NCBI GenBank assembly: GCA_964036045.1
Contig: OZ038388.1
Location: forward strand, 1,063,501 to 1,127,500
Length of the DNA stretch: 64,000 nucleotides
Reading direction: 5' to 3'
Source of the DNA: Eutreptiella sp. 'Long Island Sound 2002'
Lineage: Eukaryota > Euglenozoa > Euglenophyceae > Eutreptiales > Eutreptiaceae
A program made the position numbers and the translations under genes. Below the pieces are notes generated by a model. It searched no databases, had not been told where the DNA came from, and worked only from the letters and a program-made list of their open reading frames with translations. Below are positions 23,073 to 58,698 of the stretch, in pieces; within the stretch, counting starts at the first letter, position 1; every line of letters starts with the position of its first letter.

Positions 23073-23595
23073 ACATGGTAGAAACTTGTTTATAACTTGT
23101 TGACCATGTGTCTGGACTTGATATTATGACTTTCGAGTGTAGCGCATGAGTCTTGCGGTTGCATAGCATCTTTTCTTAGGTTCCCACGACCATTTAACCC
23201 AAGGTTATGACCATGGAGGGGCATGGCATACCATGGTGGGAGCCAATTTTAAGGGCTATGTGTGATATTGGTAGTATATGTCTTGATATGCGCACGCCCA
23301 TGTTATATATCTTCGTGTGGCCGAAGAGATGGAGAGCCACACGTGACAAGGGCTTTGCCCATGTCCCAATTGTGGAATTCAAAGCGCTAGACTAAGTCTA
23401 CCGCGTATGTATTGCTCATGGTATGTTTGGCAAAGAGATCCATGAGTGCACTCCCATTTTCATGGAGCATGTAGATATTAGTGGCGGAGGTGTCTCCATG
23501 CGCCCAATTGGGGATCCAAGTGGGGGAATTGTTCGCAAATGGTTCCAATCATTTGAATGTTGAACCATGCGCGGATATCATGGGTCAGCATAGAG
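23073..23595. repeat. 523-bp target duplication, left copy (insert 1)
   Basis: This is the same as 28837-29359, with about 17 substitutions and equal length (523 bp each). Homology starts at ACATGGTAG and stops at GCATAGAG, exactly at the insert borders. Confidence 0.85.
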
Positions 23596-23609
23596 GTAGG
23601 TAGGTAGGT
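23595..23609 (-). repeat. (GGTA)n end of insert 1
   Basis: Three GGTA units plus GGT sit at the left border. On the minus strand this is a (TACC)n tail at the 3' end, the kind of short tandem tail many LINE-type retrotransposons have. Insert 2 has the same tail. Confidence 0.75.
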
Positions 23610-25935
23610 GCACTCGGTCGTCGAGAGGCGCCCCATGGTTCCCCCTGGCGTCGCCCCTGTGACGAACAGGAAGAGGCTCCGCGCGTGAAGAGGGGAGGCG
23701 GCTTACTTCCCGCTAGACCTGACTGTTGGCCCCCAACAAAACGGCCCCGGGCAACGCCGGGAGGGCTGATCGCCGCCAGCGTGACATGCTTGTCTCGCCG
23801 GGGGGGTGTGCCCCCGTGCTTGCGCACGTCCCCTCCTTTGGGCGGAACCCTAGGGGTTCACCGGACTTCCTGGCGTATCCCGTTCCCAAGGCATGCATGC
23901 ACGTTCTTGGTACTAGGGTTCCGAGGCGCTTGGGTGTCGCACGCTCCGCCTCGAGTCCCAAAGCAGCGCAGGCCTTAGGATGCAGCCTTACCCCCGGTCT
24001 CCGGATCTCGTTTGGCCGGGTCACCTGCATGGCACGGGCTGCCTCAGTGCCCGGGCTGTGGGCACTGGGTTTCCTACTGTTGTGCGGCGTTTGTGTTTGG
24101 GTCCGGTTGGCGGTTGGGTGTGGGTTTTGTTAACCCCGCCAGTCCTGGCTGGGGTCTTGGGTGGGTGTGTTTGGGCACGGTTTGTGGTGTTGTCCCTCTA
24201 GTGTTGGCTGTTTGTGGTGTTCGTGGTTGGGCTTCGGTTTCGGCCTGCTTTTGGGACGTGTGTGGTTTCGTGGGCGCCCCGCTTGCCCCCCGCCGTTTCC
24301 GGTTCCGGCGTGCGGTGTGGGCGTGTGTGCTGGGCCCGGGTCTCGGCTGTGCCCAGCCCTTCTTGGCTGGGTTGTCGGGGTGTGTTTTTTGCGCTTTTGT
24401 TTTTTCTTTTTTTTTTTCTGTCCCCGGCTTTGTGGTCCCTGTCCCTCCATCCCCTTTCTTTCGGGCTGGGCTGGTGGCTCTTCTTTTTTTTTTTTCGTTT
24501 CGGTGTCCCTTTTCCCCGTGGGCCGCTGTTACTGGCTTGGTGTTGCCGGTTTTGGGTGGGTGGTCCCCCTGTGCCTCTGTGGGGGTCCTGTCTTCGGTGC
24601 CTTCTGGGGGGGGGGTTGGCCGCCTGTGGTGGTGTTGGCGGGCGGTTTGGCGGCTGTGGGCTGTTTTCGTGCCTTTTCCCCCTCCCCCCTCCCTTTTTTT
24701 GGGGGGGGGGGGGCTTGCCTGTTCCTCCTTCTGCCTTCCCTGGGCTGGCGCACGCACTGGCCTGCATTCAGTGTTGTCTTGCGGGCTGCTGTCTTTAGTT
24801 GCGTTCTGTGTGGCCGCGTTCCGGCCCCGTGGGTCGGGTGGGCTATGTACACGGTGGGCTCGGCGCCCCTTCTTGCCGGGTTAGGTCCTGGCTCTGCCGG
24901 CTGGGCGGCTGCGCCAGGCGGCTGCTTGTGGTTTTGGGTTAGGGGGCTGGGGTTGTTCGTGTCCTTTCCCCTCTGCCGTGCCGGCTGTAATCTTCTGGGT
25001 GGTCCGCCACCGTTGTCGCCAGGCGCGCTGTGGCCCCGTGTGTGGCCTGCGGTGCTGGTGTGTGGCGTGCTGGCGCGGCGCCTTCCAGGGTGTGCGGTGG
25101 CTGGCTTCGGTTAATCCCTCAGGTTAGGGTCAGTTGTGTCGTGCTGTGCCCCTCTGTGCCGCGTCGCGTCGCGTCGTGTTGTGGTGCGTTGCACTGTGGC
25201 GCGCTGTGGTGCGGTGTGCCGTGGTCTCGCGTGGTGCCGCGTTGGGTCAGTGGAGGTCAGCCTGGCCTGTGTCGTGGTGCGGAGTGCGGGCCGGAGTTTG
25301 GCTGGCTGGTGGCTGGGGGGTGCGGTTAGGTGTGGGTGGCTCGCTGGGTCCGTGCTGTGGGGGCTTGGGCGTGCCGCTCGGGCTGGTGGGTCGGGTAGGT
25401 TGTTCGCGTGACGGTCCGTGGGGTTGCCCTCCCTGGGGGCCTGTGCCTTGGTCCCGTGTCCTCTGGGGGTTTCGGTCCCTAGTCATGGGTGCCGCGGCCG
25501 TGCCTTCGTCCTCTTCCGGTGCCTGTGGGGTGGCCCTTGTGCCGGCCGGGGTCGTCGCCTGGCGGTGAGGGCGTGGTGGTGTGCCGTGCGGCGGCGTTCC
25601 CTGCGGCTTCCTCTGTGGGTGTGGCACGTTCTTCCCGTGTAGGTGTGCCCTCCATTCTCCGTGTGGTTTCCGGTGGCCGGTGGGCGTGCGCTGGTGTGAT
25701 CCGCATGGCGTCCGATGTTTGCTTCGGTGGTGTGTGTTGGGGTGTTTGGTGGGGCTGGGGCGGCGCTGGTTGCCCCGTCGTGGTGTGCCCTTCCTGGGTG
25801 TGGGTCGTGGTGCCTGCCGTGGTGCCCTTTTCCTCCGTGTCTTGGTCCCCGCTCCCGCCCCTTCCTGGTTCTTGGGTGGTTTCCTGCCCCCATGTGGTGT
25901 CGCTTCCGGCGTCCTGTCCCTGCGAGTGCCTGCCC
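23610..25935 (-). other. long 3' region of insert 1, + strand almost without A
   Basis: The stretch holds no recognisable gene. The run 24532-24751 (220 bases) contains no A on the + strand. Because every stop codon needs an A, several long + strand ORFs appear here and are artefacts. Confidence 0.7.
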
Positions 25936-27450
25936 TCACTTGGGGCCCTTCCGTGACCTCTTGCCTGAGTGCTCCTTGGTGCCCCTTGCCCTTCCCTTGC
26001 CCTTGTCCTGCCCCTTCCTGGTGTGGTGGTGGCGGGGGGGGCGGGGTGGGGAGGGGGCGCCGGCGGCCCAGGCCTGGGGGTGGGTGGCCTGGAGCCACTG
26101 GCGGAGGGCTTGGGGGGTGTAGGGGGGGCGGAGGCCCTGGACCGCATCGCGGAGGAGGGCCTCCCATGCCGCTTGCGGCATGATGGCCTCCGGGGCAGCC
26201 TCGTTGGGGTTTGCGGGGGTGCGGGTGCGCACCTCCTCGAAGGTATGCACCATGTGCACCCCTTCGTGCCTTCCCGCTCCTCCGGCCCACTTCACCCAGC
26301 GGCGGAGCTCCTGCAGACCGGGGGGAGACCACCAGGCGAGGTGGGCGGGGGCCCGGGGGGGGGAGGGGTCCGTGCCCGTGCTCGTGGTGCGGCGGGGGGA
26401 GGACGTGGACCTGCGGTGGTGGCGGGGGTGGCGGTGCCTGGGGGAGCGGGAGCGGCGGCGGCGGGTGCTGGAGGTGGAGGATGGGTACGGGCGGAGGGGG
26501 GAGCGGGAGGGGGAGGTGGACATGGGGCGGCGGTGGCGCGCTCGGTGGCGTCCGGGGGAGCGGGAGTGGTGATGGCGGGGGCTGGGGGTGGTGGATGGGT
26601 ACGGGTGGCGGGGGAAACGGGGAGCCCGGCGGGGCGTGTGGGGGGAGGGGGAGGTGGACGTGGGGCGGCAGTGGCGTGCCTGGCTGCGTCGGGGGGAGCG
26701 GGAGTGGTGGTGGCGGCCGCTGGGGGTGGGGGTCTTGTTTGGCCGGTGGGGGGAGGGGGAGGCGGACATGGGGCGGCGGTGGCGCTCGTGGTGGTGCCCG
26801 GGGGAGCGGGAGCGACGGGAGCGGGGTCCCGGGGGGTCGTGGTGGCACCTGGGGGAGCGGGAGCGGCGCGAGTGGTTGGTTGAGGCGCGGTGGGAGTGTG
26901 GGCGCCGTGGGCGAGTGTGCCGTGCGGGGGGGGAGCGGGAGCGCCGCCGTTTGCGGGACCGGGCCTCATCGCTCGAGTCGGGCCAGTCCGGAGGCGTTGG
27001 CGGCCCCTGGGGGGCCTCGCGCAGTGCCGCCTGGTACTGGGGGGGGGGGGGGGGGAGGTCCCTCGTCGTCCATGGATCCGCCACGTAGGGTTGTGGTGGC
27101 GGTAAGGGCTGGTGGTATGGGTCGAGTGGCTGTGCTTGGCGGGGTTGGGCCCGGGGGGCCCCTTCGGCGTGGACGTGGTGGCCGGGGGGGTACGGATACG
27201 GTTCCTGGTACGGGGGTGGTGGCTCGTACGGGGGGGGTGGCCCCCTCGCGGTAGGTGGGGTATGCGGGTGGAGCACTGTGTGGCTGCCATCCCGTCCGCT
27301 GGTGCTGTTCGTGCACGGGGGGTTGTGGCCCGGTGGGGTAGGGCGGTGGGCAGTGGTAGTGGTGGGGGTGGTGTTGGTAGTGGTGGTGTCGGGGCCGCTG
27401 GTGGTGGTGGTGTGGGTAGTGGTGGGGTTGGTGTTGCGGGTATGGCCCAT
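25936..27450 (-). CDS. SR-rich nucleic-acid-binding-type ORF of insert 1
   Basis: The 504-codon frame starts at an ATG at 27450, though useful coding may begin further upstream in another frame. It has an N-terminal Thr/Pro region, a Pro/Tyr-rich part, a long block of RSRSP and HHHSRSP repeats (about 26,350-26,960), and a C-terminal region with conserved-looking Trp residues (HLAWWSPPG, WVKWAGG, AAWEALLRD). It ends in a Lys/Gly/Arg tail (KGQDKGKGRARG). At DNA level the SR block consists of imperfect repeats of roughly 105-135 bp. Such composition suits an RNA-binding ORF of a LINE-like element. I do not recognise a named family. Insert 3 has an ORF of similar plan (58699-60671). Confidence 0.5.
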   Translation of the reverse strand: MGHTRNTNPTTTHTTTTSGPDTTTTNTTPTTTTAHRPTPPGHNPPCTNSTSGRDGSHTVLHPHTPPTARGPPPPYEPPPPYQEPYPYPPGHHVHAEGAPRAQPRQAQPLDPYHQPLPPPQPYVADPWTTRDLPPPPPQYQAALREAPQGPPTPPDWPDSSDEARSRKRRRSRSPPARHTRPRRPHSHRASTNHSRRSRSPRCHHDPPGPRSRRSRSPGHHHERHRRPMSASPSPHRPNKTPTPSGRHHHSRSPRRSQARHCRPTSTSPSPHTPRRAPRFPRHPYPSTTPSPRHHHSRSPGRHRARHRRPMSTSPSRSPLRPYPSSTSSTRRRRSRSPRHRHPRHHRRSTSSPRRTTSTGTDPSPPRAPAHLAWWSPPGLQELRRWVKWAGGAGRHEGVHMVHTFEEVRTRTPANPNEAAPEAIMPQAAWEALLRDAVQGLRPPYTPQALRQWLQATHPQAWAAGAPSPPRPPRHHHTRKGQDKGKGRARGTKEHSGKRSRKGPK

Positions 27451-28700
27451 GGACCCCTTGTGGGTTTTCCGGTCCCCCTTGTGGGGGTGGGGGGTTGGTC
27501 ATCCTGGGCAGTCCCCGGGGCTGCACTATGTGGTGGGCAGGGGGGGCGGGTTTGGGGGCCGGGCCTGACGGTGACGGTGGTCGAGGGGTCCCACGTCCCT
27601 GGGTCGGTTTGGCCGGCGGTGGTGGTGGTTTGTGGGGGATGGATGACGGGGCGCTTGGTGACGGGGATGCGGACGAGGGCTTGGACGGGGTCGTGCTGGG
27701 TGGCCGTCTCTGCGGTGGTGGTGGGTGCCGGCGGGAGGGGGGCGCGGGTTGCGGTGGGTGGGGGGTCCTGGCTTGGGCGAGGGTCCGGGCGGGGGTGGTG
27801 TCGGGTGGGTTTGTGTCGTTGCGTCTGTGGTGTTGTGTGTGCTCGCGTGGGCGCCGGCTTGGGTTTGGGGTCGGGTTTGGGGTTGGGGTCCGGTTCCAGG
27901 TTGAGAAGTACCTCTGTCCGGAGGTGTGAGGGCGCCGATGTCGGGTCGGGGGTCGTCCCGGTGGGTTGCCGGGGTGCCTGAGTCGCCTGTGTGGGGGTTG
28001 GGGGGTCGGTGCGTGCGGCCGCGGTCTTGGCTTTCGCCGTGGCCTTGAGGATGAGGGCGGCGGGGAGGGGGGGGTCGGAGGATGAGGTGGAGGAGGTGGA
28101 CGAGGCTGAGGATGAGGAGGAGGTGGTGTACGCGGGTTGGGCTGTGATGCGGGCGGGCTTGTGGGCGGCGGCTTCTGCTGCGGCCACGGCGAGGAGGATG
28201 GAGGGCATGTCCTCGGGCTGTGGGTTGGAGGCGGGCGGCTGGGGGGGCCCGGTCGTGACCTGGCGGCCCGGCGGGCCGATCTGGTCGGCAGCGGCAGGGG
28301 AGGGAGGCGCGGGGCTGTGGCCTTCTCCTTCTGGGCTCGGCTGGGCCCGGGTCCTGCAATGTGCGAGGTCGTGTGGGTTGGCGTCCGCGGGGGGGAACAG
28401 TTCGCGTGGACTGCATTCAGGGGCCGGGGGGGCTGGGCCTGGGTCCTCTGGGGTGTGTGTGGGGGGCGTGGGCGGGCCACTGGGGGGGGTGGGCGTGCCG
28501 CGGGGCGCGGGGCTCCCCTCGGCGGGTGTGTGTGGGTTGTCGAGTGTGGGGGGCGGTGAAGGGTGTCCGGCGGCCGGGTGTGTGGCGGGCGTGTGCTGGT
28601 GTTCAGGCGGGTGGGGGAGGCCCGTGTCGCGGGGCCCGGGGGTGCGCGCGATGGTGGGCGTGTGTGGGTCTCCGGTTGAGCAGCGAGAGGGGGGGGGCAT
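26292..28700 (-). CDS. upstream overlapping ORF of insert 1, Pro/Ala/Thr-rich
   Basis: This is an 802-codon minus-strand frame. Its first part (28700 to about 27480) contains a plausible helical segment (MPSILLAVAAAEAAAHKP) and a Ser run. The later part looks like an off-frame reading of the SR block. One real gene may have started here and moved into the 25936-27450 frame, which would mean an indel near 27,450. Composition is biased because the minus strand is poor in T, so an artefact remains possible. Confidence 0.3.
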   Translation of the reverse strand: MPPPSRCSTGDPHTPTIARTPGPRDTGLPHPPEHQHTPATHPAAGHPSPPPTLDNPHTPAEGSPAPRGTPTPPSGPPTPPTHTPEDPGPAPPAPECSPRELFPPADANPHDLAHCRTRAQPSPEGEGHSPAPPSPAAADQIGPPGRQVTTGPPQPPASNPQPEDMPSILLAVAAAEAAAHKPARITAQPAYTTSSSSSASSTSSTSSSDPPLPAALILKATAKAKTAAARTDPPTPTQATQAPRQPTGTTPDPTSAPSHLRTEVLLNLEPDPNPKPDPKPKPAPTRAHTTPQTQRHKPTRHHPRPDPRPSQDPPPTATRAPLPPAPTTTAETATQHDPVQALVRIPVTKRPVIHPPQTTTTAGQTDPGTWDPSTTVTVRPGPQTRPPCPPHSAAPGTAQDDQPPTPTRGTGKPTRGPWAIPATPTPPLPTPPPPAAPTPPLPTPPPPLPLPTALPHRATTPRARTAPADGMAATQCSTRIPHLPRGGHPPRTSHHPRTRNRIRTPPATTSTPKGPPGPNPAKHSHSTHTTSPYRHHNPTWRIHGRRGTSPPPPPSTRRHCARPPRGRQRLRTGPTRAMRPGPANGGAPAPPPHGTLAHGAHTPTAPQPTTRAAPAPPGATTTPRDPAPVAPAPPGTTTSATAAPCPPPPPPTGQTRPPPPAAATTTPAPPDAARHATAAPRPPPPPPTRPAGLPVSPATRTHPPPPAPAITTPAPPDATERATAAPCPPPPPAPPSARTHPPPPAPAAAAPAPPGTATPATTAGPRPPPAAPRARARTPPPPGPPPTSPGGLPPVCRSSAAG

Positions 28701-28836
28701 GGGCGGGGATTGTGCGGCGGGGTGTGCTGTGTCGGTGTATGTGTCCGCTTGCCGCGCGCTTGCGTGGGCAGTCGTAGGCCGGGCGGTTTGGAGGAGAAGC
28801 TTGCCGTCTTCTGCTGCCGCGGCAAGGATTTCGCAG

Positions 28837-29359
28837 ACATGGTAGAAACTTGTTTATAACTTGTTGACCATGTGTCCGGACTTGATATTATGACTTTCGA
28901 GTGTAGCGCATGAGTCTTGCGGTTGCATAGCATCTTTCCTTAGGTTGCCACGACCATTTAACCCAAAGTTATGACCATGGAGGGGCATTACATACCATGG
29001 TGGGAGCCAATTTTAAGGGCTATGTGTGATATTGGTAGTATATGTCTTGATATGCTCACGCCCATGTTATATATCTTCGTGTGGCCGAAGAGATGGGGAG
29101 CCACACGTGACAAGGGCTTTGCCCATGTCCCAATTGTGAAATTCAAAGCGCTAGACTAAGTCTACCGCGTATGTATTGCTCATGGTATGTTTGGCAAAGA
29201 GATCCATGAGTGTACTCCCATTTTCATGGGGCATGTAGATATGAGTGGCGAAGGTATCTCCATGCGCCCGATTGGGGATGCAAGTGGGGGAATTGTTCGC
29301 AAATGGTTCCAATCATTTGAATGTTGAACCATGCGCGGATATCATGGGTCAGCATAGAG
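28837..29359. repeat. 523-bp target duplication, right copy (insert 1)
   Basis: This is the partner of 23073-23595, of equal length. After it the R3 unit continues with ATATACTATCATG. Confidence 0.85.
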
Positions 29360-30306: not shown

Positions 30307-32320
30307 TCAGGGTTGAAGGAGGATTTTATTTTCTATATTTTTGCGCTCAGGATATTTCTCCTTACCCTCATGACGCTTCTTACCACACCACACGCACAAA
30401 TTCAAACGTAACCGCTCCTTCACGTCTGACTCCCCAACGCGTTTCTGGTTCTTCAACCATGGGGGCCAGTGAGTAGAGGAACCAACCCAGCAGGTCTTTG
30501 GGTTGTGTGCCTTACCACAGTGTGTGCAAGGGGGGAGACCAGGATCCGAAGCCGTACGCTTGCCCCCCCCATGCTCACGCTCAGGTGATCGTCCACGCCT
30601 ATTTGCTTCATCCCCACGTGTTCTACCCCGACTATCAGGATGGATTCCCCGCACCGGCGCCTCGTCAGAGTGAGTCTCTGTGGTCTCGCGCCCTGCCGCT
30701 TTCTTGGATACCGTGAAACGCCTATGAGTGCGCAACAAAGGCATGATGAAATTATGGCAATCCTCCAAAGTCAATGCTTTGGGCTGTGTGTCCTCAAACT
30801 CATACAGCTTCTCAAGCTGCGAATCAAAAAACCCACAAGATAGCAAAGCATGCAAATACTGAGTCTTGGCAATGTCTGGTGGCACACCCCCCAACCGCTT
30901 CAAAAGCACGGACCACTGCAGGATCCAGTCCCTATAATCTTGCAAGTCACTCGACTCCGGTCGGGATTTCTGCCATTCAGTTTGCAAAGAAACAGGATTC
31001 GACAACATCTTAGCTTCACTCTTAATCTCATGCCAAATATCGGTATATGTCCAACCCAATTCATAAATTCACTTCAAGTATGAGTCAGCCGATTTATCCG
31101 GCAAACAAGACAACAAAGTCAAAGTTCGCAAATGCGGGCTCATAACTGAGCCCCAAAACTCCGTATAATACTTCCACTGCTTTCGAAACACATGCCAATT
31201 CAAAAAATCAGCGTCCAGCTTAGGACGTGGCAAAAACCTACGAATCTCCTTCTTGGCCTGTTCATCAAGCAACCTCAATTCGTTAGGATCAAACTGATCG
31301 CTAAGGACTCCTCGCACACGCCCTTCTCTCTTTCCGACTGTATCACCCATGAGGTCAGCCAATTGATCCACTTCAACATGCTTACCCTCATCCACTGAAC
31401 TGAAAAAAGACCGTACCTTCTGAGCATCCTTCCTCAATTGATCATGGGCGGTGTCTTTCCGTTGATGAGACAAAGAGGGGAAGCTTGCCTCTCCCACCTC
31501 ACTAGCATTGCTGTCATCATCAAAAGAAAATGCATTGAAACCAGAGCTCTTAGTTTTACCTTGCAACCGAAATGGAGACAAACCACCAATGCTACTCCGA
31601 GTTACCCGTGAGGGTGCACCATCGACTGATTGTGAGTGTTTGGTGCTTTTACCCAATAGACCTTGTAATGAGGAGTATGGTGCACGACCTACTTCATCGT
31701 CACTATCTCCAGCACGAAAACGAACATATGCCTCTTTAGCTGTTGGAATTGGCACTCGTTCGGCGGATCGATGGCTCACTGTGTCTCCTTTGATATCCTC
31801 CACACATTCGGCGATGGCTGCCGAAAGGGGAGAGACAACATTAGAGACATGTTCAAATAACTCCTTCCTCCTCACAAGTGCATCATCACCCAATTCACAA
31901 TCAATGATATGCCGAATCCTACTTAACTCGCGACCAAATTCATCCAAAACCCGTGTCTCTCCATGTGAAACCCAGTCACCATCTACTGGTTCCTTCTTGA
32001 CACCCCTTGTGGGATTCAACAAAGAAGCACGTGTGTCAACCTCTAATTTGAAGCGATGGAAATCATTCAAGGTGACAGATGACGCATAACGAGAATGCAA
32101 GTTGTGAATTTCTTTCTGCAAATTACCATCAACCAATTGGATATTTTTTTGCAATTCACCAATAGAATTCGAGTTTGGATGAACCATTTTGAAGGAAGAA
32201 TCAACCATATCCATTCTACGACACAACTCCTCAATGTTAGATGGAATTGTATCATACTTTTTCATGTTATCCTCCATGCGTTGAATTTCGTGCGCGCTCG
32301 GCATTGAAGAAATCTTTTCC
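30307..32320 (-). pseudogene. gag: Gag-like protein, 3' part (minus strand), with an in-frame TGA
   Basis: This is the downstream part of a large retrotransposon Gag-like protein. It runs 32320 to 31072, meets one in-frame TGA (31069-31071), then continues to 30307. A conserved-looking block (FLNWHVFRKQWKYYTEFWGS and the WQKSRPESSDLQ region) resembles Gag segments of Pao or similar LTR elements; the family is uncertain. Near the end are a full zinc knuckle (CTHCGKAHNPKTC, CX2CX4HX4C) and a second, CVWCGKKRHEGKEK, with Lys where the last Cys should be. The single stop and the missing Cys mark decay. No pol follows. Confidence 0.7.
31919..32320. repeat. 402-bp target duplication, left copy (insert 2)
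   Basis: This is identical to 38863-39264 except for about three substitutions, with equal length. The duplicated DNA is coding sequence of the minus-strand Gag. Confidence 0.9.
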
Positions 32321-32323
32321 GTG

Positions 32324-32345
32324 AGGTAGCTAGGTAGGTAGGTAT
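32324..32345 (-). repeat. (GGTA)n end of insert 2
   Basis: AGGTAGCTAGGTAGGTAGGT at the left border is an imperfect GGTA array matching the end of insert 1. Confidence 0.7.
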
Positions 32346-32905
32346 CTTCGGGAGCTCGGGATGCCTCCTTTGACGGTGCAGGAAGAAGGTCTTACCATGG
32401 GGACGTCCTGTCCCTCCCACTGCCCTATGTTAGGTGCCCCTTGAGCCGCTCCCGCATGTGCTTGGGAAGGCATTGTCGCGGCCACCCGGTCCATGTGTCC
32501 CAGGTGGGAGGGTGTCCCCACATGTGTCCATGAGTAGGGCCACATGCCCCCTCCTTCGGGCGGCAGCTCTGGGGGCTGCCCAGCCGTGTGGAGTATCTCT
32601 CACCACAAGGGGTCTTGCTCCCGCTTGTCTACGGTACGACCGCCTCACCCTTGTGGCTTGAGTTGCGGGGCCGCTCCGCTTGGCAGGCGACCCCCTCCTG
32701 GACTGTGTACCGGCTCGCCTGTCACCGGTTGCATCCATGGCTCCGGGTGACGTTTGCCATGGTCCCCGATGCAGCCTGGCCAGGCTCGGACCAGCAGCCT
32801 TGGAGTACCGCTCCTGCCACTGGCCCGGTGGGTCGGCTGGGTCGCCCCAGTGTGTCCGACCCATGGGGTGTTGGTGCTTTCCTGTCCCATGGCCGCCCTA
32901 CGTGT
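32346..32905. other. GC-rich stretch between tail and minisatellite of insert 2
   Basis: No gene is seen. A CCCCTCCTTCGGGCGG word near 32547 resembles CCCCTCCTTTGGGCGG in insert 1 near 23831, at a similar distance from the tail. This supports a shared 3' region. Confidence 0.5.
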
Positions 32906-35900
32906 GTGCGGTGTCCTGGGCCTCCCGGCTCCTGTTCACCGATGTGCCCGCTCGCCGTGTTGTGTTGGGTGTGCGGTGTCCTGGGCCCCCCGGCTCCTGT
33001 TCACCGGTGTGCCCGCTCGGTGTGGTGTGTTGCGTGTGCGGTGTCCTGGGCCTTTGGCTCCTGTTCACCGGTGTGCCCGCTCGGTGTGTTGTGTTGCGTG
33101 TGCGGTGTCCTGGGTCTCTGGCTCCTGTTCACCGGTGTGCCCGCTCGGTGTGTTGTGTTGCCTGTGCGGTGTCCTGGGCCCCCCGGCTCCTGTTCACCGG
33201 TGTGCCCGCTCGGTGTGTTGTGTTGCCTGTGCGGTGTCCTGGGCCTCCCGGCTCCCGTTCACCGGTGTGCCCGCTCGGTGTGTTGTGTTGCGTGTGCGGT
33301 GTCCTGGGCCCCCCGGCTCCTGTTCACCGGTGTGCCCGCTCGGTGTGTTGTGTTGCGTGTGCGGTGTCCTGGGCCTCCGGCTCCTGTTCACCGGTGTGCC
33401 CGCTCGGTGTGTTGTGTTGCGTGTGCGGTGTCCTGGGCCTCCGGCTCCTGTTCACCGATGTGCCCGCTCGCCGTGTTGTGTTGGGTGTGCGGTGTCCTGG
33501 GCCCCCCGGCTCCTGTTCACCGGTGTGCCCGCTCGGTGTGGTGTGTTGCGTGTGCGGTGTCCTGGGTCTCCGGCTCCTGTTCACCGGTGTGCCCGCTCGG
33601 TGTGTGGTGTTGCCTGTGCGGTGTCCTGGGCCCCCCGGCTCCTGTTCACCGGTGTGCCCGCTCGGTGTGTTGTGTTGCGTGTGCGGTGTCCTGGGCCCCC
33701 CGGCTCCTGTTCACCGGTGTGCCCGCTCGGTGTGTTGTGTTGCGTGTGCGGTGTCCTGGGCCTCCGGCTCCTGTTCACCGGTGTGCCCGCTCGGTGTGTT
33801 GTGTTGCGTGTGCGGTGTCCTGGGCCCCCCGGCTCCTGTTCACCGGTGTGCCCGCTCGGTGTGTTGTGTTGCCTGTGCGGTGTCCTGGGCCTCCCGGCTC
33901 CTGTTCACCGGTGTGCCCGCTCGGTGTGTTGTGTTGCGTGTGCGGTGTCCTGGGCCTCCCGGCTCCTGTTCACCGGTGTGCCCGCTCGGTGTGTTGTGTT
34001 GCGTGTGCGGTGTCCTGGGCCTCCGGCTCCTGTTCACCGGTGTGCCCGCTCGGTGTGTTGTGTTGCGTGTGCGGTGTCCTGGGCCTCCCGGCTCCTGTTC
34101 ACCGGTGTGCCCGCTCGGTGTGGTGTGTTGCCTGTGCGGTGTCCTGGGCCTCCGGCTCCTGTTCACCGGTGTGCCCGCTCGGTGTGTTGTGTTGCGTGTG
34201 CGGTGTCCTGGGCCTCCCGGCTCCTGTTCACCGGTGTGCCCGCTTGGTGTGTTGTGTTGCGTGTGCGGTGTCCTGGGCCTCTGGCTCCTGTTCACCGGTG
34301 TGCCTGCTCGGTGTGTTGTGTTGCGTGTGCGGTGTCCTGGGCCTCCGGCTCCTGTTCACCGGTGTGCCCGCTCGGTGTGTTGTGTTGCGTGTGCGGTGTC
34401 CTGGGCCCCCCGGCTCCTGTTCACCGGTGTGCCCGCTCGGTGTGGTGTGTTGCGTGTGCGGTGTCCTGGGCCTCCGGCTCCTGTTCACCGGTGTGCCCGC
34501 TCGGTGTGTTGTGTTGCGTGTGCGGTGTCCTGGGCCTCCCGGCTCCTGTTCACCGGTGTGCCCGCTCGGTGTGTTGTGTTGCGTGTGCGGTGTCCTGGGC
34601 CTCCGGCTCCTGTTCACCGGTGTGCCCGCTCGGTGTGTTGTGTTGCGTGTGCGGTGTCCTGGGCCTCCGGCTCCTGTTCACCGGTGTGCCCGCTCGGTGT
34701 GTTGTGTTGCGTGTGCGGTGTCCTGGGCCTCCCGGCTCCTGTTCACCGGTGTGCCCGCTCGGTGTGTTGTGTTGCGTGTGCGGTGTCCTGGGCCTCCCGG
34801 CTCCTGTTCACCGGTGTGCCTGCTCGGTGTGTTGTGTTGCGTGTGCGGTGTCCTGGGCCTCCCGGCTCCTGTTCACCGGTGTGCCCGCTCGGTGTGTTGT
34901 GTTGCGTGTGCGGTGTCCTGGGCCTCCTGGCTCCTGTTCACCGGTGTGCCTGCTCGGTGTGTTGTGTTGCGTGTGCGGTGTCCTGGGCCTCCCGGCTCCT
35001 GTTCACCGGTGTGCCCGCTCGGTGTGTTGGGTTGCGTTTGCGGTGTCCTGGGCCTCCCGGCTCCTGTTCACCGGTGTGCCCGCTCGGTGTGTTGTCTTGC
35101 GTGTGCGGTGTCCTGGGCCCAGCGGCTCCTGTTCACCGGTGTGCCCGCTCGGTGTGGTGTGTTGCGTGTGCGGTGTCCTGGGCCTCCGGCTCCTGTTCAC
35201 CGGTGTGCCCGCTCGGTGTGTTGTGTTGCGTGTGCGGTGTCCTGGGCCTCCCGGCTCCTGTTCACCGGTGTGCCCGCTCAGTGTGTTGTGTTGCGTGTGC
35301 GGTGTCCTGGGCCTCCGGCTCCTGTTCACCGGTGTGCCCGCTCGGTGTGTTGTGTTGCGTGTGCGGTGTCCTGGGCCCCCCGGCTCCTGTTCACCGGTGT
35401 GTCCGCTCGGTGTGGTGTGTTGCGTGTGCGGTGTCCTGGGCCTCCGGCTCCTGTTCACCGGTGTGCCCGCTCGGTGTGTTGTGTTGCGTGTGCGGTTTCC
35501 TGGGCCTCCCGGCTCCTGTTCACCGGTGTGCCCGCTCGGTGTGTTGTGTTGCGTGTGCGGTGTCCTGGGCCCGCCAACTCCTGTTCACCGGTGTGCACGC
35601 TCGGTGTGTTGTGTTGCGTGTGCGGTGTCCTGGGCCTCCCGGCTCCTGTTCACCGGTGTGCCCGCTCGGTGTGTTGTGTTGCGTGTGCGGTGTCCTGGGC
35701 CTCCCGGCTCCTGTTCTCCGGTGCGCCCGCTCGCTGTGTTGTGTTGCGTGTGCGGTGTCCTGGGCCCCCCGGCTCCTGTTCACCGGTGTGCCCGCTCGGT
35801 GTGTTGTGTTGCGTGTGCGGTGTCCTGGGCCTCCGGCTCCTGTTCACCGGTGTGCCCGCTCGGTGTGTTGTCTTGCATGTGCGGTGTCCTGGGCCTCCCG

Positions 35901-36395
35901 GCTCCTGTTCACCGGTGTGCCCGCTCGGTGTGTTGTGTTGCGTGTGCGGTGTCCTGGGCCTCCCGGCTCCTGTTCACCGGTGTGCCCGCTCGGTGTGTTG
36001 TGTTGCGTTTGCGGTGTCCTGGGCCTCCCGGCTCCTGTTCACCAGTGTGCCCGCTCGGTGTGTTGTGTTGCGTGTGCGGTGTCCTGGGCCCCCCGGCTCC
36101 TGTTCACCGGTGTGCCCGCTCGGTGTGTTGTGTTGCGTGTGCGGTGTCCTGGGCCTCCGGCTCCTGTTCACCGGTGTGCCCGCTCGGTGTGTTGTGTTGC
36201 GTGTGCGGTGTCCTGGGCCTCCGGCTCCTGTTCACCGGTGTGCCTGCTCGGTGTGTTGTGTTGCGTGTGCGGTGTCCTGGGCCTCCCGGCTCCTGTTCAC
36301 CGGTGCGCCCGCTCGGTGTGTTGTGTTGCGTGTGCGGTGTCCTGGGCCTCCCCGCTCCTGTTCACCGGTGTGCCCGCTCGGTGTGTTGTGTTGCT
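32906..36395. repeat. minisatellite, 64/65-bp unit, about 54 copies
   Basis: The unit contains the 8-bp palindrome CACCGGTG, the word GCTCGGTGTGTTGTGTTGC and CGGTGTCCTGGGCC. Units are 65 bp (CCTCCCGG or CCCCCCGG variants) or 64 bp (CCTCCGG). The + strand unit has only one regular A (in TTCACC), so no frame can contain a stop. Three overlapping reading frames of 1,277-1,847 codons result and are artefacts. On the minus strand each unit has a TGA in one frame. Confidence 0.95.
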
Positions 36396-36411
36396 GTGCG
36401 GGGCGTCGCTG

Positions 36412-36572
36412 CGGGGCGCCCACTCGTCCATCTGGACGGCGGCTATCGTAGCCGGCAGGGGCTGGGTACCCTCCGGGCGCACACACGTCCATCCGGACGG
36501 CGGCTGTTCGTAGCCGGCAGGTGCTGGGTACCCTCCGGGCGCGAACTCGTCCATCCGGACGGCGGCTGGCGT
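36412..36572. repeat. short tandem repeat of about 63 bp, 2.6 copies
   Basis: The unit contains CGTCCATCCGGACGGCGGCT, GTAGCCGGCAG and CTGGGTACCCTCCGGGCGC. TCCATCCGGACGG includes a near-palindrome. The array abuts the minisatellite but has a different unit. Confidence 0.85.
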
Positions 36573-38290
36573 GCGTGTGCTTGCTCTTTGTGGCCGGGTC
36601 GGGCGGGCCGGCCTCCCGGGCGCGTTGTGGTGCGCCTCACCTTTTCCTTTGGCCGCCTTGTCTTTCTGCTTTGCTTGGCCCCCTCCGGGCTGGGGTTGCT
36701 GCCCGCTCTCTCGCTGCCCTTGCCGTTCCTCGTTGCCTTGGCGCCGTGCTTTGGTTGTTTTTCTCGGCCTCCCGCTGCCTGGCTCTTCGTGCGCTCGCGC
36801 GTCGTTTGTGTCTCCCGCTTGGCCGTTGGCTGCTCTTTGGTGGTTTCTCCCCCCACCCCCTCCCTTTTTGTGTCTCGGTGTTTTCGTCGCTCCTGCTTGG
36901 TGCCTTGGTGTTGTTTTTTTTTTTTTTTTTTTTTTTCCCTTCTTCCCCTGTGCGCCCCCGTTGTCTCCGGCTTTCTCTGGTTTCCGGCCCCGGGTGCCCT
37001 GGGCCTCGGCGCTGTGCGTTGTTTGCTTTGTTGGCCTTCCGCCTCTCGGCTCTCCGTGTGCTTGTCCCTCTTTCGTGCTTTCCGCCTGGCTGGTGCTTGC
37101 TCCCCGTCGGTTGCTGCCCCCCCCCCCCCCCCTTTTTGTCTCGCGGTTTTCGTCGCTGCCGCTCGGTGCTGTGTGCCGTGTGCTGCGTTGTGCTGTGTGT
37201 CCCTGGGTGCGGTGCTGTGCCGTGTTGTGCTCGTTGGGTGCCGCTGCTTGTTGCGCCGTGCCCTCTGGCGCTGCCCGTTGCCCTGGGGCCCTGTGCTCTG
37301 CGGCGCTGCGTTTTGCGGTATTCCCCTGTGCTGTGTGTGTTTTGTCGTGGTGCGGTGGTGCGTGCTGTTGTTGGCCGCTCTGCTTTGTGCTGTGTGTGTC
37401 CCGGGGTGCTGTGCTGTGCGTTCCCTGTCCTCTCCGCTACGTGCGGTGTGTGCTTCGGCGTGCTGGTGCGCTTGTGTTGTACTGTTCGTGTGGTGCTCGC
37501 TGTTACTGGCGCCTGGTGCTGTGGTGTGCCGTGGTGCGGTGCTGGGTCTGGTGGCCGGTGGTTGTCTGCTGGTGGCGTGTTTCGGTGTCGGTGTCCCTGT
37601 CTGGCCGCGTGGTCTGTTTCCCTGTGGTTGGTGTGGTTTGCTGTGGTGCCCTGCTTTCCTGTGTCGTGTTCTGTGGTGCTGTGCTGTCGCGTGGTGCTGT
37701 GCTGTTGTGCTCTGCTGTCGTGTTGCGGTGCTGTTGGGGCTTGCTTTGCCCTCCTGTGGGCTGTCGTGCTGTGCTGTGTTGTGCTGTTGGTTGGCTGTGC
37801 TGTTTTTTGTCCGGTGGTGGTGTCTGCGTGCTGTGGTGCTCTTTTCCTCATGCTGTGCGTTCCCTGTCTTCTCCGCTCTGTGCGCTGCGGTGCCTTGTTG
37901 TGCTGGCTGTGGTGCCTTGCTTCCCTGTGTCATGTGCTGTGGCGCTGTGCTGTCGTGTGGTGCTGTGCTGTCGTGCTCTGCTGTCGTTTTGCGGTGCTGT
38001 TTGTGTTTGCTTTGCCCTCCTGCGGCCCGTCGTGCGGCGCCAGTGTCGTCTGCGCTGTTGTTGGTGCCTCGTGCTGTGGCGTGTCCCTGTGCGTTGTGGT
38101 GTCTCCCTGGGCGTTCTGCGGTGTGGTGGTGCTGCTCTGGTGTGTCGTGGTGTCTTGCTGTGCTGTGCGTTGTCCTGTGGTGTCCTGCGCCCTGTGCCGT
38201 GTCCTGCGGTGCCGTGCTGCCCTGCGGTGCTGTGCTGGTTTGTTTCTTGCGTGGGTGTGGTTGTACCTACTTGAAAAACCGCCGCAAAAT
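36573..38290. other. A-depleted stretch of insert 2
   Basis: The run 36856-37319 (464 bases) contains no A on the + strand, and the whole stretch is made of GTGCTGTGC-like words. A 496-codon minus-strand frame (36443-37933) exists, but its composition (Thr, Gln, His, Arg, Lys) follows from the missing T on that strand. I see no protein family in it. Confidence 0.6.
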
Positions 38291-38337
38291 TTCGTAAAAT
38301 ATTTTTTTTTTTTTTTCCTCTTTTTTTTTTTTTTTTG
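38291..38337. repeat. poly-T tracts
   Basis: Two long T runs are separated by CCTC, followed by A-rich DNA. On the minus strand they are poly-A tracts. They may be an internal relic of a poly-A retroposon, or simple slippage. Confidence 0.6.
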
Positions 38338-38862
38338 CTTTTGAAAAAAAATAAAATTATACACGACCCAACACACTCGCATGCAGCAAGACCATGTTCG
38401 TTGCTGTGCCTTACGTGCTACCCGTCGTTCTTGATGTTCTCGGCCTTGTTCTTGTGCGTGGCGTCAAGGAGCGTGTTGGTGTCCATTGCTAAGGGTTAAC
38501 CGCGTTCCCCCAGGGCCGCCGCCTGAGCTGCAGGGCAAGGGGAGTGATGGGCACGAGGGTGGGGAGGGAGGTGCATGGAGAAGAAGAAGAAAAAGGCGGC
38601 AGGGCGCGACATGAGGGGTCGTGGCGAGTTATGAAAAATTTTCGAGTTTTACGCGCTGCTCGCGAAGCGTTTTTCTTTGCACCCATAGCGAGTTAGACAA
38701 CGGCAAGGACGGCGTTGGGGTCCTACGAGCGTTACGGTGCTTACGGCGTTAACTATTCACCTATTTGACGTCGAAAAAGTTTTCGTCGCGTTTTTACGCG
38801 TTTCGCAGCGCGCTTTTTGGCCTAAGCGTTTTTTATGCTAATTAGTCTTATTTTCAGCTATT

Positions 38863-39264
38863 CTACTTAACTCGCGACCAAATTCATCCAAAACCCGTGT
38901 CTCTCCATGTGAAACCGAGTCACCATCTACTGGTTCCTTCTTGACACCCCTTGTGGGATTCAACAAAGAAGCACGTGTGTCAACCTCTAATTTGAAGCGA
39001 TGGAAATCATTCAAGGTGACAGATGACGCATAACGAGAATGCAAGTTGTGAATTTCTTTCTGCAAATTACCATCAACCAATTGGATATTTTTTTGCAATT
39101 CACCAATAGAAATCGAGTTTGGATGAACCATTTTGAAGGAGGAATCAACCATATCCATTCTACGACACAACTCCTCAATGTTAGATGGAATTGTATCATA
39201 CTTTTTCATGTTATCCTCCATGCGTTGAATTTCGTGCGCGCTCGGCATTGAAGAAATCTTTTCC
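38863..39264. repeat. 402-bp target duplication, right copy (insert 2)
   Basis: This is the partner of 31919-32320. Beyond it the Gag coding sequence continues with CTTGAATTCCTG. Confidence 0.9.
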
Positions 39265-40505
39265 TTGAATTCCTGTAGCAATTGAGTTGAAGAAATATTG
39301 GAGGATGATGCCTCCAATGCCATAATACGCGTATCAAGCGCCTCAATTTGTGAAGACAATTGCCGGACACTCACCTATTTGTCCGAACGAATGGCGCGCA
39401 ACTCTTGGGTGAATTGTTGACTCAATGAATCAAATCTGCGTTGCAATTCACCCAACTCTTGTCGAATTACCTTGGTATTTACATTGTCACCACAAGCATC
39501 CGACAATGGTTCACGCATGGATGAAATTTCTTGCGAACACCGTGTTTGGCCCTCTTCAAGTTTCCTATCTCCCTCTTGAAATATACAATCCATTTTGGAT
39601 AAACGTGACTCCAAATAAACACGGTCTTCCTTTAACAAAGATTGAAGTGCATCGTGTGTCACACATGAATTAACATGGTTTCGTAGTTCCCCAATTTGAG
39701 AGCGATACTCCTCACGCGCACCATGTAAATCACGCTCATGCCCTTGAATGCCTTGTTGCACATGACGAATGCATTGTTCTTGCTCATCCAATTTTGACCG
39801 AACACCATTCAATAACCCGGCATGTGATTCAACCACTTGAGAAATTTTCTCCACAAATTGACCCAAATTGTTGCCAACCGTGACAACACGTTGAATGTCC
39901 TCAGAATGCGTGTTTATGATGGCTTGCATAGATTGACCAGATTGAACCAAATTCTCCACAACCTCAGACACACCCAATAATAGGTCTTGTGCCGCCCCAT
40001 CTAATTGAGAATTTGTGCGAACCGCGCGGCGAATTTCAACTGGCACACCATCCGGAGTAACGAACCGAACCTGTTCGACGCGCTCTTCTCCAAATTCCCA
40101 TGCTTCATGCTCAAGAATGTTCGAGTCTCCACTATCTCCTTGTTGAAACTGCGAGAACGCCAACTGTCGTGACGGGCTTTCGAGCATCGGAAAGCTCCGA
40201 GTATATGCGAACCTCGCCGGCGTGCCTTGAGCGCGCCCATCATGAACTATCATCTCGTTCGGCCGCTCCGGCGAAACTCGATTACCAATTCGATACATCG
40301 GTCGATTTGTAGTTGTCGAATAAAATGTCGCTTTTGAAAACGAATTCCAATACCTTGCGAGATATATTCCGCAGCGATTCTCAACAATGGGCTCAAATCC
40401 GTAAACTTCTGTCGATCGATACAGGGCAGAACCTAATCTGCTACCATGCACGACAGATGATCGCCGGTAATCAAAGCAGAGTAAAAAGCCAATCAATCCA
40501 TTCAA
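38863..40505 (-). pseudogene. gag: Gag-like protein, 5' part (minus strand), coiled coil, with in-frame TAG
   Basis: This is the upstream part of the Gag split by insert 2. It reads from an ATG at 40505 through 376 codons to a TAG (39375-39377), then continues in the same frame from 39374 through the insertion point. The middle is heptad-rich and should form a long coiled coil (residues about 150-376 and on). No membrane segment is seen. The bases around the TAG read AGGTGAGT, which also matches a splice-donor consensus; but coding continues directly in frame, so a nonsense mutation is simpler. The last 402 bp are the right copy of the insert 2 target duplication. Confidence 0.7.
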
Positions 40506-46805: not shown

Positions 46806-46810
46806 TCGTC

Positions 46811-47356: not shown

Positions 47357-47461
47357 AAGACAGCCGTCGCCAGCAAAGTCTTCGGAAGCCACACAGACCA
47401 AGCACAACGTCCCACGCCACAGGGATTTTGTCAAACCTGGGGAGCGAGTACTCCGACGTGA

Positions 47462-54635: not shown

Positions 54636-54656
54636 GGTTTGAGGTTTGAGGTTTGA
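54636..54656 (-). repeat. (GGTTTGA)3 end of insert 3
   Basis: Three perfect 7-mers at the left border. On minus they form a TCAAACC tail at the 3' end, comparable in position to the GGTA arrays of inserts 1 and 2 but of different sequence. Confidence 0.8.
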
Positions 54657-55908
54657 TTTTGCGGGTACTAGACGCCTTTCGGCCCCGGGGGGCCACCTGG
54701 TCGGGCCAGGTGATATCCTCCCCACCGGGTCCTAGTGGGGGGCCCTCCAAGACGCACCTCCTGCCTGGTGGCGGAGTCCCCCGGGTTCACAGAGCTCGGA
54801 GCCCCGTCCCTCCCCGGCGTCCCCGTTTCGCCACTCCCCGGTCAGTACATCAATTCGCAGCCGTGGCCGCGGGCGCTTACCCACTGCGTCGCCCCCCTAA
54901 TGTGTGGTCGCCCGGGGCACCGGCGCCGCCGGGCCCGTGCTACTGGCTTGTCGCCAGTGGGACCCCCTTGGGCTGGCGCGGTGGCTGCCTAGCCTAGGGG
55001 TTGGGGCGTGGCGCTGTGCGCCACTACTGCCTTGGCGGGTGCAGTGTCCCGTCTGTGTGTGCGCGGCGCTCGCGGCCGGTTCGGGGGGGTTCGGGCCGGT
55101 ACCTGGTGTTGTGTGTCCCCTTCTTCCCCCTTCCCGCCCCGCGTATCCCGCGTTGCGTGTGGCGGGCCGTCCCGTCCGGGTGTCCCTTATCCTCGCTCGC
55201 TGGTACGCCATTCCATGTGGTCTGTGCGTTCCGCCCGCTCGGTCCGGTTGCCCTTCTGGTGGTCCCCGCGTGTCCTTTTCGTGTGTGTGCGCTCGCGCTC
55301 TCGCGGTGTCCGCTCCCCGCTGGGTGGTGTGGCGCGCGCATCTCGCGTGGTCCCGGCACTGGGCGCTGGTAGGGCCGTTCCATGTGGTCCCTGCCCCTCC
55401 GCGTGTCCTGCCCCGGTCCCGTGCTCCGTCTGGCGTGCTTGGGGGGGGGGCGGTCCGGTCCCGGTTCCCCCCTACTTGGCTTGGGGTTGCGGGGGCGGCG
55501 GCTGGGCGTCCCCGGGGGGGTGCCTTCGTCCATTGCGTGGGGCGTGGGGCGTCCCTCTTCCCTCCTCTGCCCGTCCACTAGGTGGGCTGTCGGGGTCTGC
55601 GTTGCGGGCGTGCGGTTGTGGGAACCCCGCTCCGTTCTCGCGGGGGGGGAGAGAGGTGTCGTCTTGGTGTCCAGGCGCCGGCCCGCCGGATTCTCATGAC
55701 GTGCCTGATGCGCACGGAGCTTCGCCCTGCGGGATGCGTGGGGGGGTTGGGGTGACCGTGGCTGGAGTGGTGCTCCAATGTCCCGGTTCATGGCCCAGCT
55801 GGGCAGCCCTACCGCGGGCTTACTCTTAGTACAGGGGGAGGGGGTTGCGGGCGCGTTTGTTCTGTGACCCGGGTGCCGGTGTATCTCAGAAGGCAGCCGC
55901 CCCGGAGG

Positions 55909-55977
55909 TAGCGCACCAGGCGCACGCCGTGAAAGAGCTGGTTCGAACCCCGGGATCGGTGGTCTCCCACCGATCCC
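55909..55977 (+). other. tRNA-like boxes plus perfect hairpin
   Basis: A-box-like TAGCGCACCAGG (55909) and B-box-like GGTTCGAACCC (55940) are followed by an 11-bp perfect stem GGGATCGGTGG / CCACCGATCCC with a 4-base loop (55952-55977). No tRNA fold is possible; it may be a Pol III promoter relic. Confidence 0.4.
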
Positions 55978-56214
55978 TTCGAATACCGGGCGAGGCCTCC
56001 CATCGACCTGTTTGAGTACAGGTGACGGTGCGCACTGCTGCAGGGGTGGGTGGTTCCCATGTGTTTTGTTTTTCTTGGGTGGGGGGTAAAACGAACGAGA
56101 CCTCCACCCGATCCACCGGTATCGGTGGTGGCGCGAGTTGCTGGAGGGGGGGGTGGTTCCCACGTTGCCAACTAGAGAGCTCTACGTGCAGGGATCCCAG
56201 GAGCACCAACGCCC

Positions 56215-56271
56215 GGGATCGAACCCCCGCACTGGACGATTGAAGACCGACGCTCTCACTACTGGGCCGCG
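56215..56271 (-). other. tRNA-like boxes, minus strand
   Basis: Read on minus: GCGGCCCAGTAGT, then after about 30 bases GGGGGTTCGATCCC, matching A and B boxes. The T-arm pairs with one mismatch; I find no acceptor stem. Confidence 0.35.
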
Positions 56272-56528
56272 GGAGTCTCTTACGCCACTGAGGGGTGTCG
56301 TCGGCTATGAATCCTGTCCTGTGGGTGGGGCTGTGCGCCGTGAAGCGTGTTGCGCGTGCCGGGAGGCCTCAGTCCACGCGCACGGGGTCGGGACAGGGGA
56401 GGGGGCTGGGTGGGGTGCGTTGGATCGCAGACTGACGTGCACAGGGGTAAGAGGCGGGCAGTAGCACCACCGGGTCGCTGACTGACTGTAGGGCGGGGGG
56501 TCGCTCTGCCTCTTTCCGTCCCTCTGCC

Positions 56529-57511
56529 TTCCCTGGGCAGGCAACAAAGCGGGCGTCACTGGCGTTGCGCTGTCCATGGGGGGCGTGGCCCCCCATACCA
56601 CTCCGGTTCGTGTTCACCCAGCCTCTCCGGGTACGATCTGTGCGGCGTCCCGGTGCGCAGGCGTGGGCCCGCTTGTTCCTCGCGGCCCCCGTGTGGGCCG
56701 TCGGCCGGAGCGGGGGGGCGGGTCGCACTCCGGCCCCTCTCTCGGGTGGGGGGGGTCCATTCCCCTTGCCTCGGGGGGGGTGTCGCGCTGCGGCCTCCCC
56801 GCTCTCGTTCCGGGCGGCGGCCTGCGGTACCCCTTTCTGGCCCTCCCCTCCGGCGCGCGCGTGCGGTCGGGGCTGAAGTGCCGCCCCGGGGCGGGGGCTT
56901 GAGGGGCGGCCCGTGGACCGCTCCCCTGGGGGCCCCGGCTGACCTGCAAACCCCCCCTCTGTCCCCTCGGAGTGGGCTGTGGTCACGGGAGGGTCATGTG
57001 GGGCGCGGCCTCCTTCGTGTTCCGTTGTGCGCGTTGCTCCGGCACGCCGGTGTGGGTTCGTGGGGGCAGGTCCAGCCGCCGCTGCCCTTACCGTGTCGCC
57101 GTTCCTCCTGTGGGTGGGGGCGCCCCCCCGGCCCTGGGGGGGCGGAGGGCCGCGCCTGTGGTTCCCCAGCTGGGGTGGGTGCGGGGGGGGGGGGGGGGGC
57201 GCCACCCCGCTCGCTCTCGGGCCTGTGTGGGAGGGGGGGGGGGGGGGAGTGGGGGGGGTCCTTCGGTTCCCTGGCGATGCCCCCTGTCGGCCAGAAAAGG
57301 GGGGGGGGGGCGGCTTGGCGGTCCCAGCCCCGGGGGCCAGCCATCGGCCAGGGGGGTCGCGCCCTTCCCCCGCCCCCCTCTACCGTGTGCCGGATCCCCA
57401 CGCAGTCCCTCCCTGGGGCCCCTCATCTCCCGGCCGTTGCCGCGCGGCGCTGGCCGGCCGGGGGTGGTCGTGAGGGTCAGCGGTCAGTGGTTAGCGGGTT
57501 GCGGGGCCGCT
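56529..57511. repeat. tandem duplication in insert 3, copy 1
   Basis: Starts TTCCCTGGGCAGGCAAC. The same sequence with changes begins again 983 bp later. Contains the word ATGGGGGGCGTGGCC at both equivalent places. Confidence 0.8.
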
Positions 57512-58562: not shown

Positions 58563-58698
58563 CCGGTTCCTCCCCGCGCTTGGCGCCCCCGCAATCCCTT
58601 CCGTGGGTGGCCGCGCGTCCCCGCACGTCGTGCCATACCGTGGGGGGGGCGTGGGTCAGGGGGCCCATCCCCCCCTCCCGCGCCCGCCGTCTGGGCCT

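What the first reader, a model, noticed from the sequence alone, without database searches (positions are those of the whole stretch)
31919..39264. Insert 2 shows the same behaviour: 402-bp target duplication in a coding sequence
Seen: 31919-32320 equals 38863-39264 (402 bp each, about three changes) around a 6,542-bp GC-rich insert that splits a Gag-like gene. With insert 1 this is the second independent case in one window, and the insert has the same (GGTA)n left end. Low divergence says it is recent. Two unrelated targets make pre-existing tandem repeats unlikely.
Basis: partly seen in the sequence, partly recalled or inferred. Interest (0 to 1): 0.88.

Follow-up and report, generated by a model that had tools for sequence, protein, structure and literature searches.

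The report
Retroelement duplicating kilobase target stretches
A 6.5-kb DNA element with the marks of a retrotransposon sits inside a predicted protein-coding gene with the same 402 bases on both sides, and 9 of 13 tested copies of it and a similar element in this 2.28-billion-base genome are flanked by duplicates of about 240 to 1,500 bases, likely because the two target strands are cut far apart during insertion, so that each jump would also duplicate a stretch of host DNA.

Summary
The site without insert exists: 6 of 6 other loci fetched carry the 402 bp once with continuous flanks, and a 686-aa relative reads through. The (GGTA)n 'left end' is best read as the 3' tail of a minus-strand element. 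The family is large (2,633 first-look candidates; the 40 scored are 98-100% identical), with a fixed 3' end, slightly varying 5' ends and no reverse transcriptase found. Thirteen copies of two (GGTA)n families were tested: nine have duplications of 243, 402, 523, 852, 960, 1052, 1108, about 1414 and about 1516 bp; one has 10 bp; one is ambiguous; two have none within 5.7 and 8.7 kb. A neighbouring 24-kb LINE has an ordinary 15 bp. Best reading: a non-autonomous non-LTR retroelement, likely mobilised in trans by a LINE, whose insertion often leaves duplications of hundreds of bases to over 1 kb. Large duplications are described for human L1 in repair-deficient cells (PMC5223499); as a frequent outcome in a natural genome this is a new variant of a known kind.

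The parts
31919..32320 (.). Target duplication, copy next to the (GGTA)n tail
   Evidence: 402 bp, 3 differences from 38863-39264; single copy in 6 of 6 other loci
38863..39264 (.). Target duplication, copy next to the element's 5' end
32321..38862 (-). Insert 2 (family A), non-autonomous retroelement, 6,542 bp
   Evidence: fixed 3' end and high-identity sister copies; no reverse transcriptase found
32321..32344 (-). 3' tail of simple GGTA/TACC repeats
   Evidence: sequence; same tail at sister copies with varying unit number
32548..32562 (-). 15-nt motif CGCCC[A/G]AAGGAGGGG beside a predicted hairpin, shared by families A and B
32904..36401 (-). 54-copy array of a 65-bp unit
38351..38862 (-). 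5' region of the element; stops about 70 bp short of the longest 5' end seen in sister copies
31186..40187 (-). Interrupted ORF, relative of P0001 (aligned parts 40187-38859 and 32343-31186)
23596..28836 (-). Insert 1 (family B), 5,241 bp; shares both ends with insert 4 at C11:1155106-1176343
23073..23595 (.). Target duplication of insert 1, copy next to the tail
   Evidence: 523 bp, 96.9%
28837..29359 (.). Target duplication of insert 1, copy next to the 5' end
54639..64000 (-). Comparison: insert 3, a LINE that continues outside the window to position 78769; 15-bp duplication 54624-54638 = 78770-78784

Best explanation
The 6,542-bp insert is likely a non-autonomous non-LTR retroelement on the minus strand that is predicted to have entered by target-primed reverse transcription with its two target strands cut 402 bp apart, so that gap filling would leave the 402 bp on both sides. 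Steps: (1) an endonuclease, predicted to come from a LINE acting in trans, nicks the window's + strand at the tail-side edge of the target (inferred). (2) The free 3' end primes cDNA on the (TACC)n tail of the RNA, giving the (GGTA)n junction (tail and junction shown, priming inferred). (3) Synthesis runs to or near the RNA's 5' end (5' ends that differ by up to about 70 bp are shown). (4) The other strand is cut hundreds of bases to over 1 kb away, and the strands are unwound and filled in (duplications of 243 to about 1,516 bp are shown, the order of events is inferred). (5) No reverse transcriptase was found in the element, so a partner is needed; the shared tail and 15-nt motif suggest that families A and B use the same one (inferred).
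For: Empty site: 6 of 6 other loci have the 402 bp once with both flanks at 98.4-99.2%; P0001 reads through. Fixed 3' end: the 40 scored of 2,633 candidates start at query base 1-8. 5' ends: of 15 read, 9 reach the outermost point and 6 stop earlier. Duplications: 9 of 13 tested copies have 243 to about 1,516 bp; among copies picked without regard to flanks it is 6 of 10 testable. At C25 the two sides are about 100% identical over 1,130 bp while the best other scored place is 97%; at C3:67.8 the first 668 query bases match only the two sides among the 40 scored places. All three GGTA/TACC runs of 3 or more units in 293.5 kb lie at such a repeat. A neighbouring LINE has 15 bp. Precedent in human cells: PMC5223499 (passages).
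Against: One copy has 10 bp, two have none within 5.7 kb and 8.7 kb, one is ambiguous. No autonomous partner with this tail was found, and an RNA intermediate is not shown. 5' truncation beyond about 70 bp could not be seen, because copies were picked by their 5' end. The shared motif is modest: 9 of 1,000 shuffles reached the alignment score. Opening 400-1,500 bp of duplex needs an assumed helicase or strand displacement. The ordinary LINE is a single comparison.
Confidence: 0.72

Rival explanations
1. Insertion starts by target priming, but there is no second cut: the cDNA end is captured by a distant pre-existing nick or copies the sister strand by repair synthesis, so the duplication length is set by chance or by host repair.
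For: Broad lengths from 10 to about 1,516 bp; about 48 bp of filler at the 5' junction of C3:67.8; the authors of PMC5223499 propose a distant unrelated nick (passages).
Against: This should also give deletions and unpaired sites; deletions could not be scored, since the empty sites of the sister copies were not sought. Repair capture would not by itself explain why the neighbouring LINE has 15 bp (one element).
Confidence: 0.17
2. Pseudo-duplication: the target was already a repeat, or recombination between segmental duplications brought similar flanks to both sides.
For: Many flanks lie in repeated DNA, and C5:51.5 does lie in a 418-bp tandem repeat.
Against: Insert 2's site is single in 6 of 6 relatives. 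The two sides are more alike than any other scored place at C25, and at C3:67.8 part of the sequence is found nowhere else among the 40 scored places.
Confidence: 0.04
3. A DNA transposon whose enzyme makes a very wide staggered cut.
For: Both ends are nearly fixed in the scored copies.
Against: One end is a simple repeat of varying unit number and the other varies; lengths of the duplication are not constant. No transposase match in the three insert ORFs searched. Terminal inverted repeats were not specifically searched for.
Confidence: 0.03
4. Assembly artefact: flanks duplicated by a faulty join.
For: I could not see reads.
Against: Nine loci on five contigs share the pattern with repeat edges at the element ends. 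The copies differ at 3 of 402 and 16 of 523, 5 of 1,108 and 2 of 960, though 0 of 1,052 at C4.
Confidence: 0.03
5. The 402-bp repeats are the LTRs of an LTR element.
For: Two direct repeats around an insert.
Against: The flanking sequence changes from copy to copy while the element ends stay, and the 402 bp lies in an ORF that occurs uninterrupted.
Confidence: 0.01

Closest known systems
Human L1 insertions in NER-deficient (XPA, XPC, XPD) cell lines, PMC5223499 (passages read)
   Same: Duplications over 100 bp in 4 of 7, 21 of 23 and 22 of 28 inserts, 18 of them over 1 kb; the size range overlaps the one here
   Different: Engineered L1 in mutant cultured cells; here natural copies in a genome where a nearby LINE has 15 bp
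Rotifer R9 non-LTR elements (only the title seen, in the reference list of PMC2861651)
   Same: Non-LTR element whose title reports an exceptionally long target duplication
   Different: rDNA-specific by its title; its length is 126 bp by my recall; here the sites are unrelated and the lengths vary up to about 1.5 kb
HERV-K (HML-2) sites with long duplications, PMC5488345 (passages read)
   Same: Duplications of 111 and 250 bp checked against preintegration sites; its authors also discuss pseudo-duplications
   Different: LTR retrovirus with integrase; rare cases there, 9 of 13 tested here
SINEs and other non-autonomous elements moved by LINEs, such as Entamoeba EhSINE1 (PMC2996970, passages read)
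   Same: No reverse transcriptase, internal repeats, mobilised by a partner LINE
   Different: Eleven family A copies here are about 4.6-6.5 kb; EhSINE1 is about 550 bp with duplications of mostly under 30 bp

Membership tests
Non-LTR (LINE-mobilised) retroelement | Constant 3' end with a simple-repeat or A-rich tail | tested here: met
   40 of 40 scored copies start at query base 1-8; GGTA tail of varying unit number
Non-LTR (LINE-mobilised) retroelement | Variable 5' end | tested here: met
   6 of 15 read 5' ends stop earlier, by up to about 70 bp; longer truncations were not visible with this sampling
Non-LTR (LINE-mobilised) retroelement | Flanking target duplications of variable length | tested here: met
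   10 of 13 tested copies have one (9 long, 1 of 10 bp), 1 ambiguous, 2 none found; much longer than the usual range
Non-LTR (LINE-mobilised) retroelement | RNA intermediate | not testable with these tools
   no transcript or mobility data
Non-autonomous element of a known LINE | 3' end shared with an autonomous LINE | tested here: inconclusive
   no autonomous element with this tail in 293.5 kb (one search finds only insert 3's reverse transcriptase); a genome-wide search for one was not run
SINE | Short element with a Pol III promoter head | tested here: not met
   Eleven family A copies are about 4.6-6.5 kb; no tRNA or Rfam match in the window
LTR retrotransposon | Direct repeats that belong to the element and are the same in every copy | tested here: not met
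   flanks differ from copy to copy

The most novel reading that the evidence does not exclude
A retroelement machine in this genome has second-strand cleavage uncoupled from first-strand priming as its normal mode, so duplications of 0.2-1.5 kb are its usual product. With thousands of copies it acts as a genome-wide generator of small segmental and coding-sequence duplications, without a general host repair defect, since a LINE next door leaves 15 bp.
Probability: 0.42. Interest if true: 0.85.

Novelty: new variant of a known kind. Interest (0 to 1): 0.72.

Why it matters
How a LINE cuts the second strand and completes insertion is a long-standing open question. A natural family whose tested copies mostly leave duplications of hundreds to over a thousand bases, beside a LINE with an ordinary one, gives a comparison for finding what sets the distance between the two cuts. 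If it holds genome-wide, each insertion also duplicates target sequence, coding sequence included, a steady source of direct repeats that could later recombine and remove the element.

Tried and rejected
Rejected: the LTR reading (flanks change from copy to copy, ends stay); the pre-existing repeat (single-copy empty sites); strict universality (one 10-bp copy, two without a duplication in 5.7 and 8.7 kb); insert 3 as the direct partner (different tail, ordinary duplication).

Led nowhere: protein families in the T-poor ORFs (three insert ORFs); tRNA and Rfam searches; naming the organism (2.28 Gb in 2,205 contigs; Euglena gracilis was considered after PMC12455990 and PMC11252322, passages, and not tested); a 123-bp repeat at C11:1293571, not resolved. 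Paper searches looked for non-LTR families with duplications of this size (48 was on Euglena); I read passages of six papers and otherwise saw listings only. I saw no report of a natural non-LTR family with frequent duplications of 0.2-1.5 kb in these, but most subscription papers are not held and preprints are mostly missing.

In one search the last printed lines (mmA/mmB) are valid only for L007, since the other loci were not reverse-complemented; only the BLAST rows are used. The p-like figure comes from a rough dinucleotide-block shuffle.

Full report
Observation. The two 402-bp copies at 31919-32320 and 38863-39264 differ at 3 positions, and the sequence between them is 6,542 bp. BLAST extends the repeat by only 7 bases in all. 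The repeat lies in a minus-strand ORF. A protein from a public assembly, P0001 (686 aa, 24 member sequences), is 97% identical to the 3' part. It aligns to both sides of the insert, and only the stretch that includes the 402 bp is shared between the two alignments. In the window's own genome (2.28 Gb, 2,205 contigs) the 402 bp has 24 matches, 18 of them over 335 bp of the query. Eight were cut out as loci; two of these are the window's own copies. In the other 6 of 6 the 402 bp occurs once, and the window's flanks continue on both sides at 98.4-99.2% identity without the insert; one of the 12 flank alignments is 1,410 bp instead of about 1,500. The uninterrupted state is therefore seen directly.

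What the insert is. On the + strand it starts with GTGAGGTAGCTAGGTAGGTAGGTA. The minus strand is rich in A and C, with 0-4% T in 500-base windows between its positions 1,000 and 6,000. A 65-bp unit is repeated 54 times in 32904-36401. Three ORFs of inserts 1 and 2 gave no Pfam match, and a tblastn scan of 293.5 kb with the reverse transcriptase ORF of a neighbouring LINE hit only that LINE. A search with the first 580 bases of the insert gave 2,633 first-look candidates; the 40 that were scored are 98-100% identical and start at query base 1-8. A search with the other end gave 2,817 candidates; the 40 scored are 97-100% identical and reach the last query base. Sister copies show that the element extends up to about 70 bp further. 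Of 15 family A 5' ends read and in the window, 9 reach that outermost point and 6 stop earlier; since copies were picked by their 5' end, longer truncations could not be seen. Eleven family A copies with both ends located are about 4.6-6.5 kb long. A fixed end with a simple-repeat tail, opposite an end that varies, is the layout of a non-LTR retroelement read on the minus strand; that is established knowledge, and its application here is inference.

Survey of duplications. In the 293.5 kb around the window there are three runs of at least three GGTA or TACC units, and all three lie at the edge of a long direct repeat. The third is insert 4, C11:1155106-1176343. It shares both ends with insert 1, contains a nested LTR element, and is flanked by 1,108 bp with 5 differences. 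I then looked at 14 copies chosen without regard to flanks: four from pairing the lists, and ten from the 33 exact 5'-end matches, spread over contigs. Ten of the 14 could be tested. C1:149.35 has 960 bp with 2 mismatches and C4:0.79 has 1,052 bp with none. C1:95.6 has 852 bp, of which 420 were compared at 99.3%, and C1:52.0 has 243 bp, of which 74 were compared at 100%. C25:19.96 has about 1,414 bp, of which 264 are extrapolated from coordinates. C3:67.8 has about 1,516 bp, of which 394 are extrapolated, with about 48 bp of filler. C1:37.4 has 10 bp. C5:51.5 sits in a 418-bp tandem repeat and is ambiguous. C3:109.02 has none within 5.7 kb, and C3:152.39 none within 8.7 kb. For C2:138.1, C4:151.5, C7:22.7 and C1:58.9 the 3' end lay outside the fetched stretch, so they were dropped. 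So 6 of 10 testable unselected copies, and 9 of all 13 tested, have duplications of 243 to about 1,516 bp.

Why these are target duplications. At C25 the two flanking copies are about 100% identical over 1,130 bp, whereas the best other scored place in the genome is 97%. At C3:67.8 the first 668 bases of the 1,150-bp query match only the two sides of the element among the 40 scored places. Together with the empty sites of insert 2 this speaks against elements landing between existing repeats. Divergence between the two copies ranges from 0 of 1,052 to 16 of 523, as expected for insertions of different age.

Comparison within the genome. The GC-rich stretch at the right end of the window is a LINE that runs past it. 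It spans 54639-78769 (24.1 kb) on the minus strand, with an endonuclease domain, a reverse transcriptase and a zinc-binding match below its cut-off. It interrupts an LTR-element-like coding stretch and is flanked by 15 bp, 54624-54638 = 78770-78784. Long duplications are therefore not a property of every LINE insertion here, though this is a single element.

Mechanism. I favour target-primed reverse transcription by a LINE protein in trans, with the second strand cut far from the first nick. Families A and B share the tail and a 15-nt motif, CGCCC[A/G]AAGGAGGGG, next to a predicted hairpin, 227-239 bp from the tail edge. The motif occurs three times in 293.5 kb on both strands, once in each of the three elements; the local alignment score of the two 3' regions was reached by 9 of 1,000 shuffles. 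This suggests a common partner, not yet found. In human cells lacking nucleotide excision repair proteins, L1 inserts have duplications over 100 bp in 4 of 7, 21 of 23 and 22 of 28 cases, 18 of them over 1 kb, and the authors suggest that a distant unrelated nick is used (PMC5223499, passages). The same idea fits here. The open step is how 400-1,500 bp of duplex is opened; a helicase or strand-displacing synthesis has to be assumed.

Limits. The genome carries no name here, long reads were not available, 13 of thousands of candidate copies were tested, and repeated 'busy' answers left unanswered the searches for the two copies without a duplication and for family B genome-wide.

Noticed in passing
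window 54639-64000, continuing in L009-L010 to C11:1142269: A LINE of about 24.1 kb, very long for its kind by my recall, with a 2,168-aa ORF2, a 1,280-aa upstream ORF, about 212-bp tandem repeats near its 5' end and a (TTTGAGG)n-type edge.
   Followed up: partly
window 32904-38300: Sense strand of insert 2 almost without T over about 5 kb, including a 54-copy 65-bp array.
   Followed up: no
window 45925-50329: Inverted repeat of 1,537 bp at 98.5% with a further 679-bp copy between the arms.
   Followed up: no
window 3796-14905: LTR element with 725-bp LTRs that differ at 1 base, and reverse transcriptase, RNase H and integrase matches.
   Followed up: no
C11:1293571-1299799 (L026-L027): A 5,983-bp GC-rich stretch between 123-bp direct repeats at 98.4%, without a GGTA run of three or more units; perhaps another family with long duplications.
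   Followed up: partly
C6:84252280-84258100 (L045, L046): Two family A 5' ends 5.6 kb apart followed by similar sequence; possibly a tandem pair sharing a duplicated target.
   Followed up: partly
C3:67876917-67878165 (L057): About 48 bp of filler of unknown origin between the element's 5' end and its target duplication.
   Followed up: no
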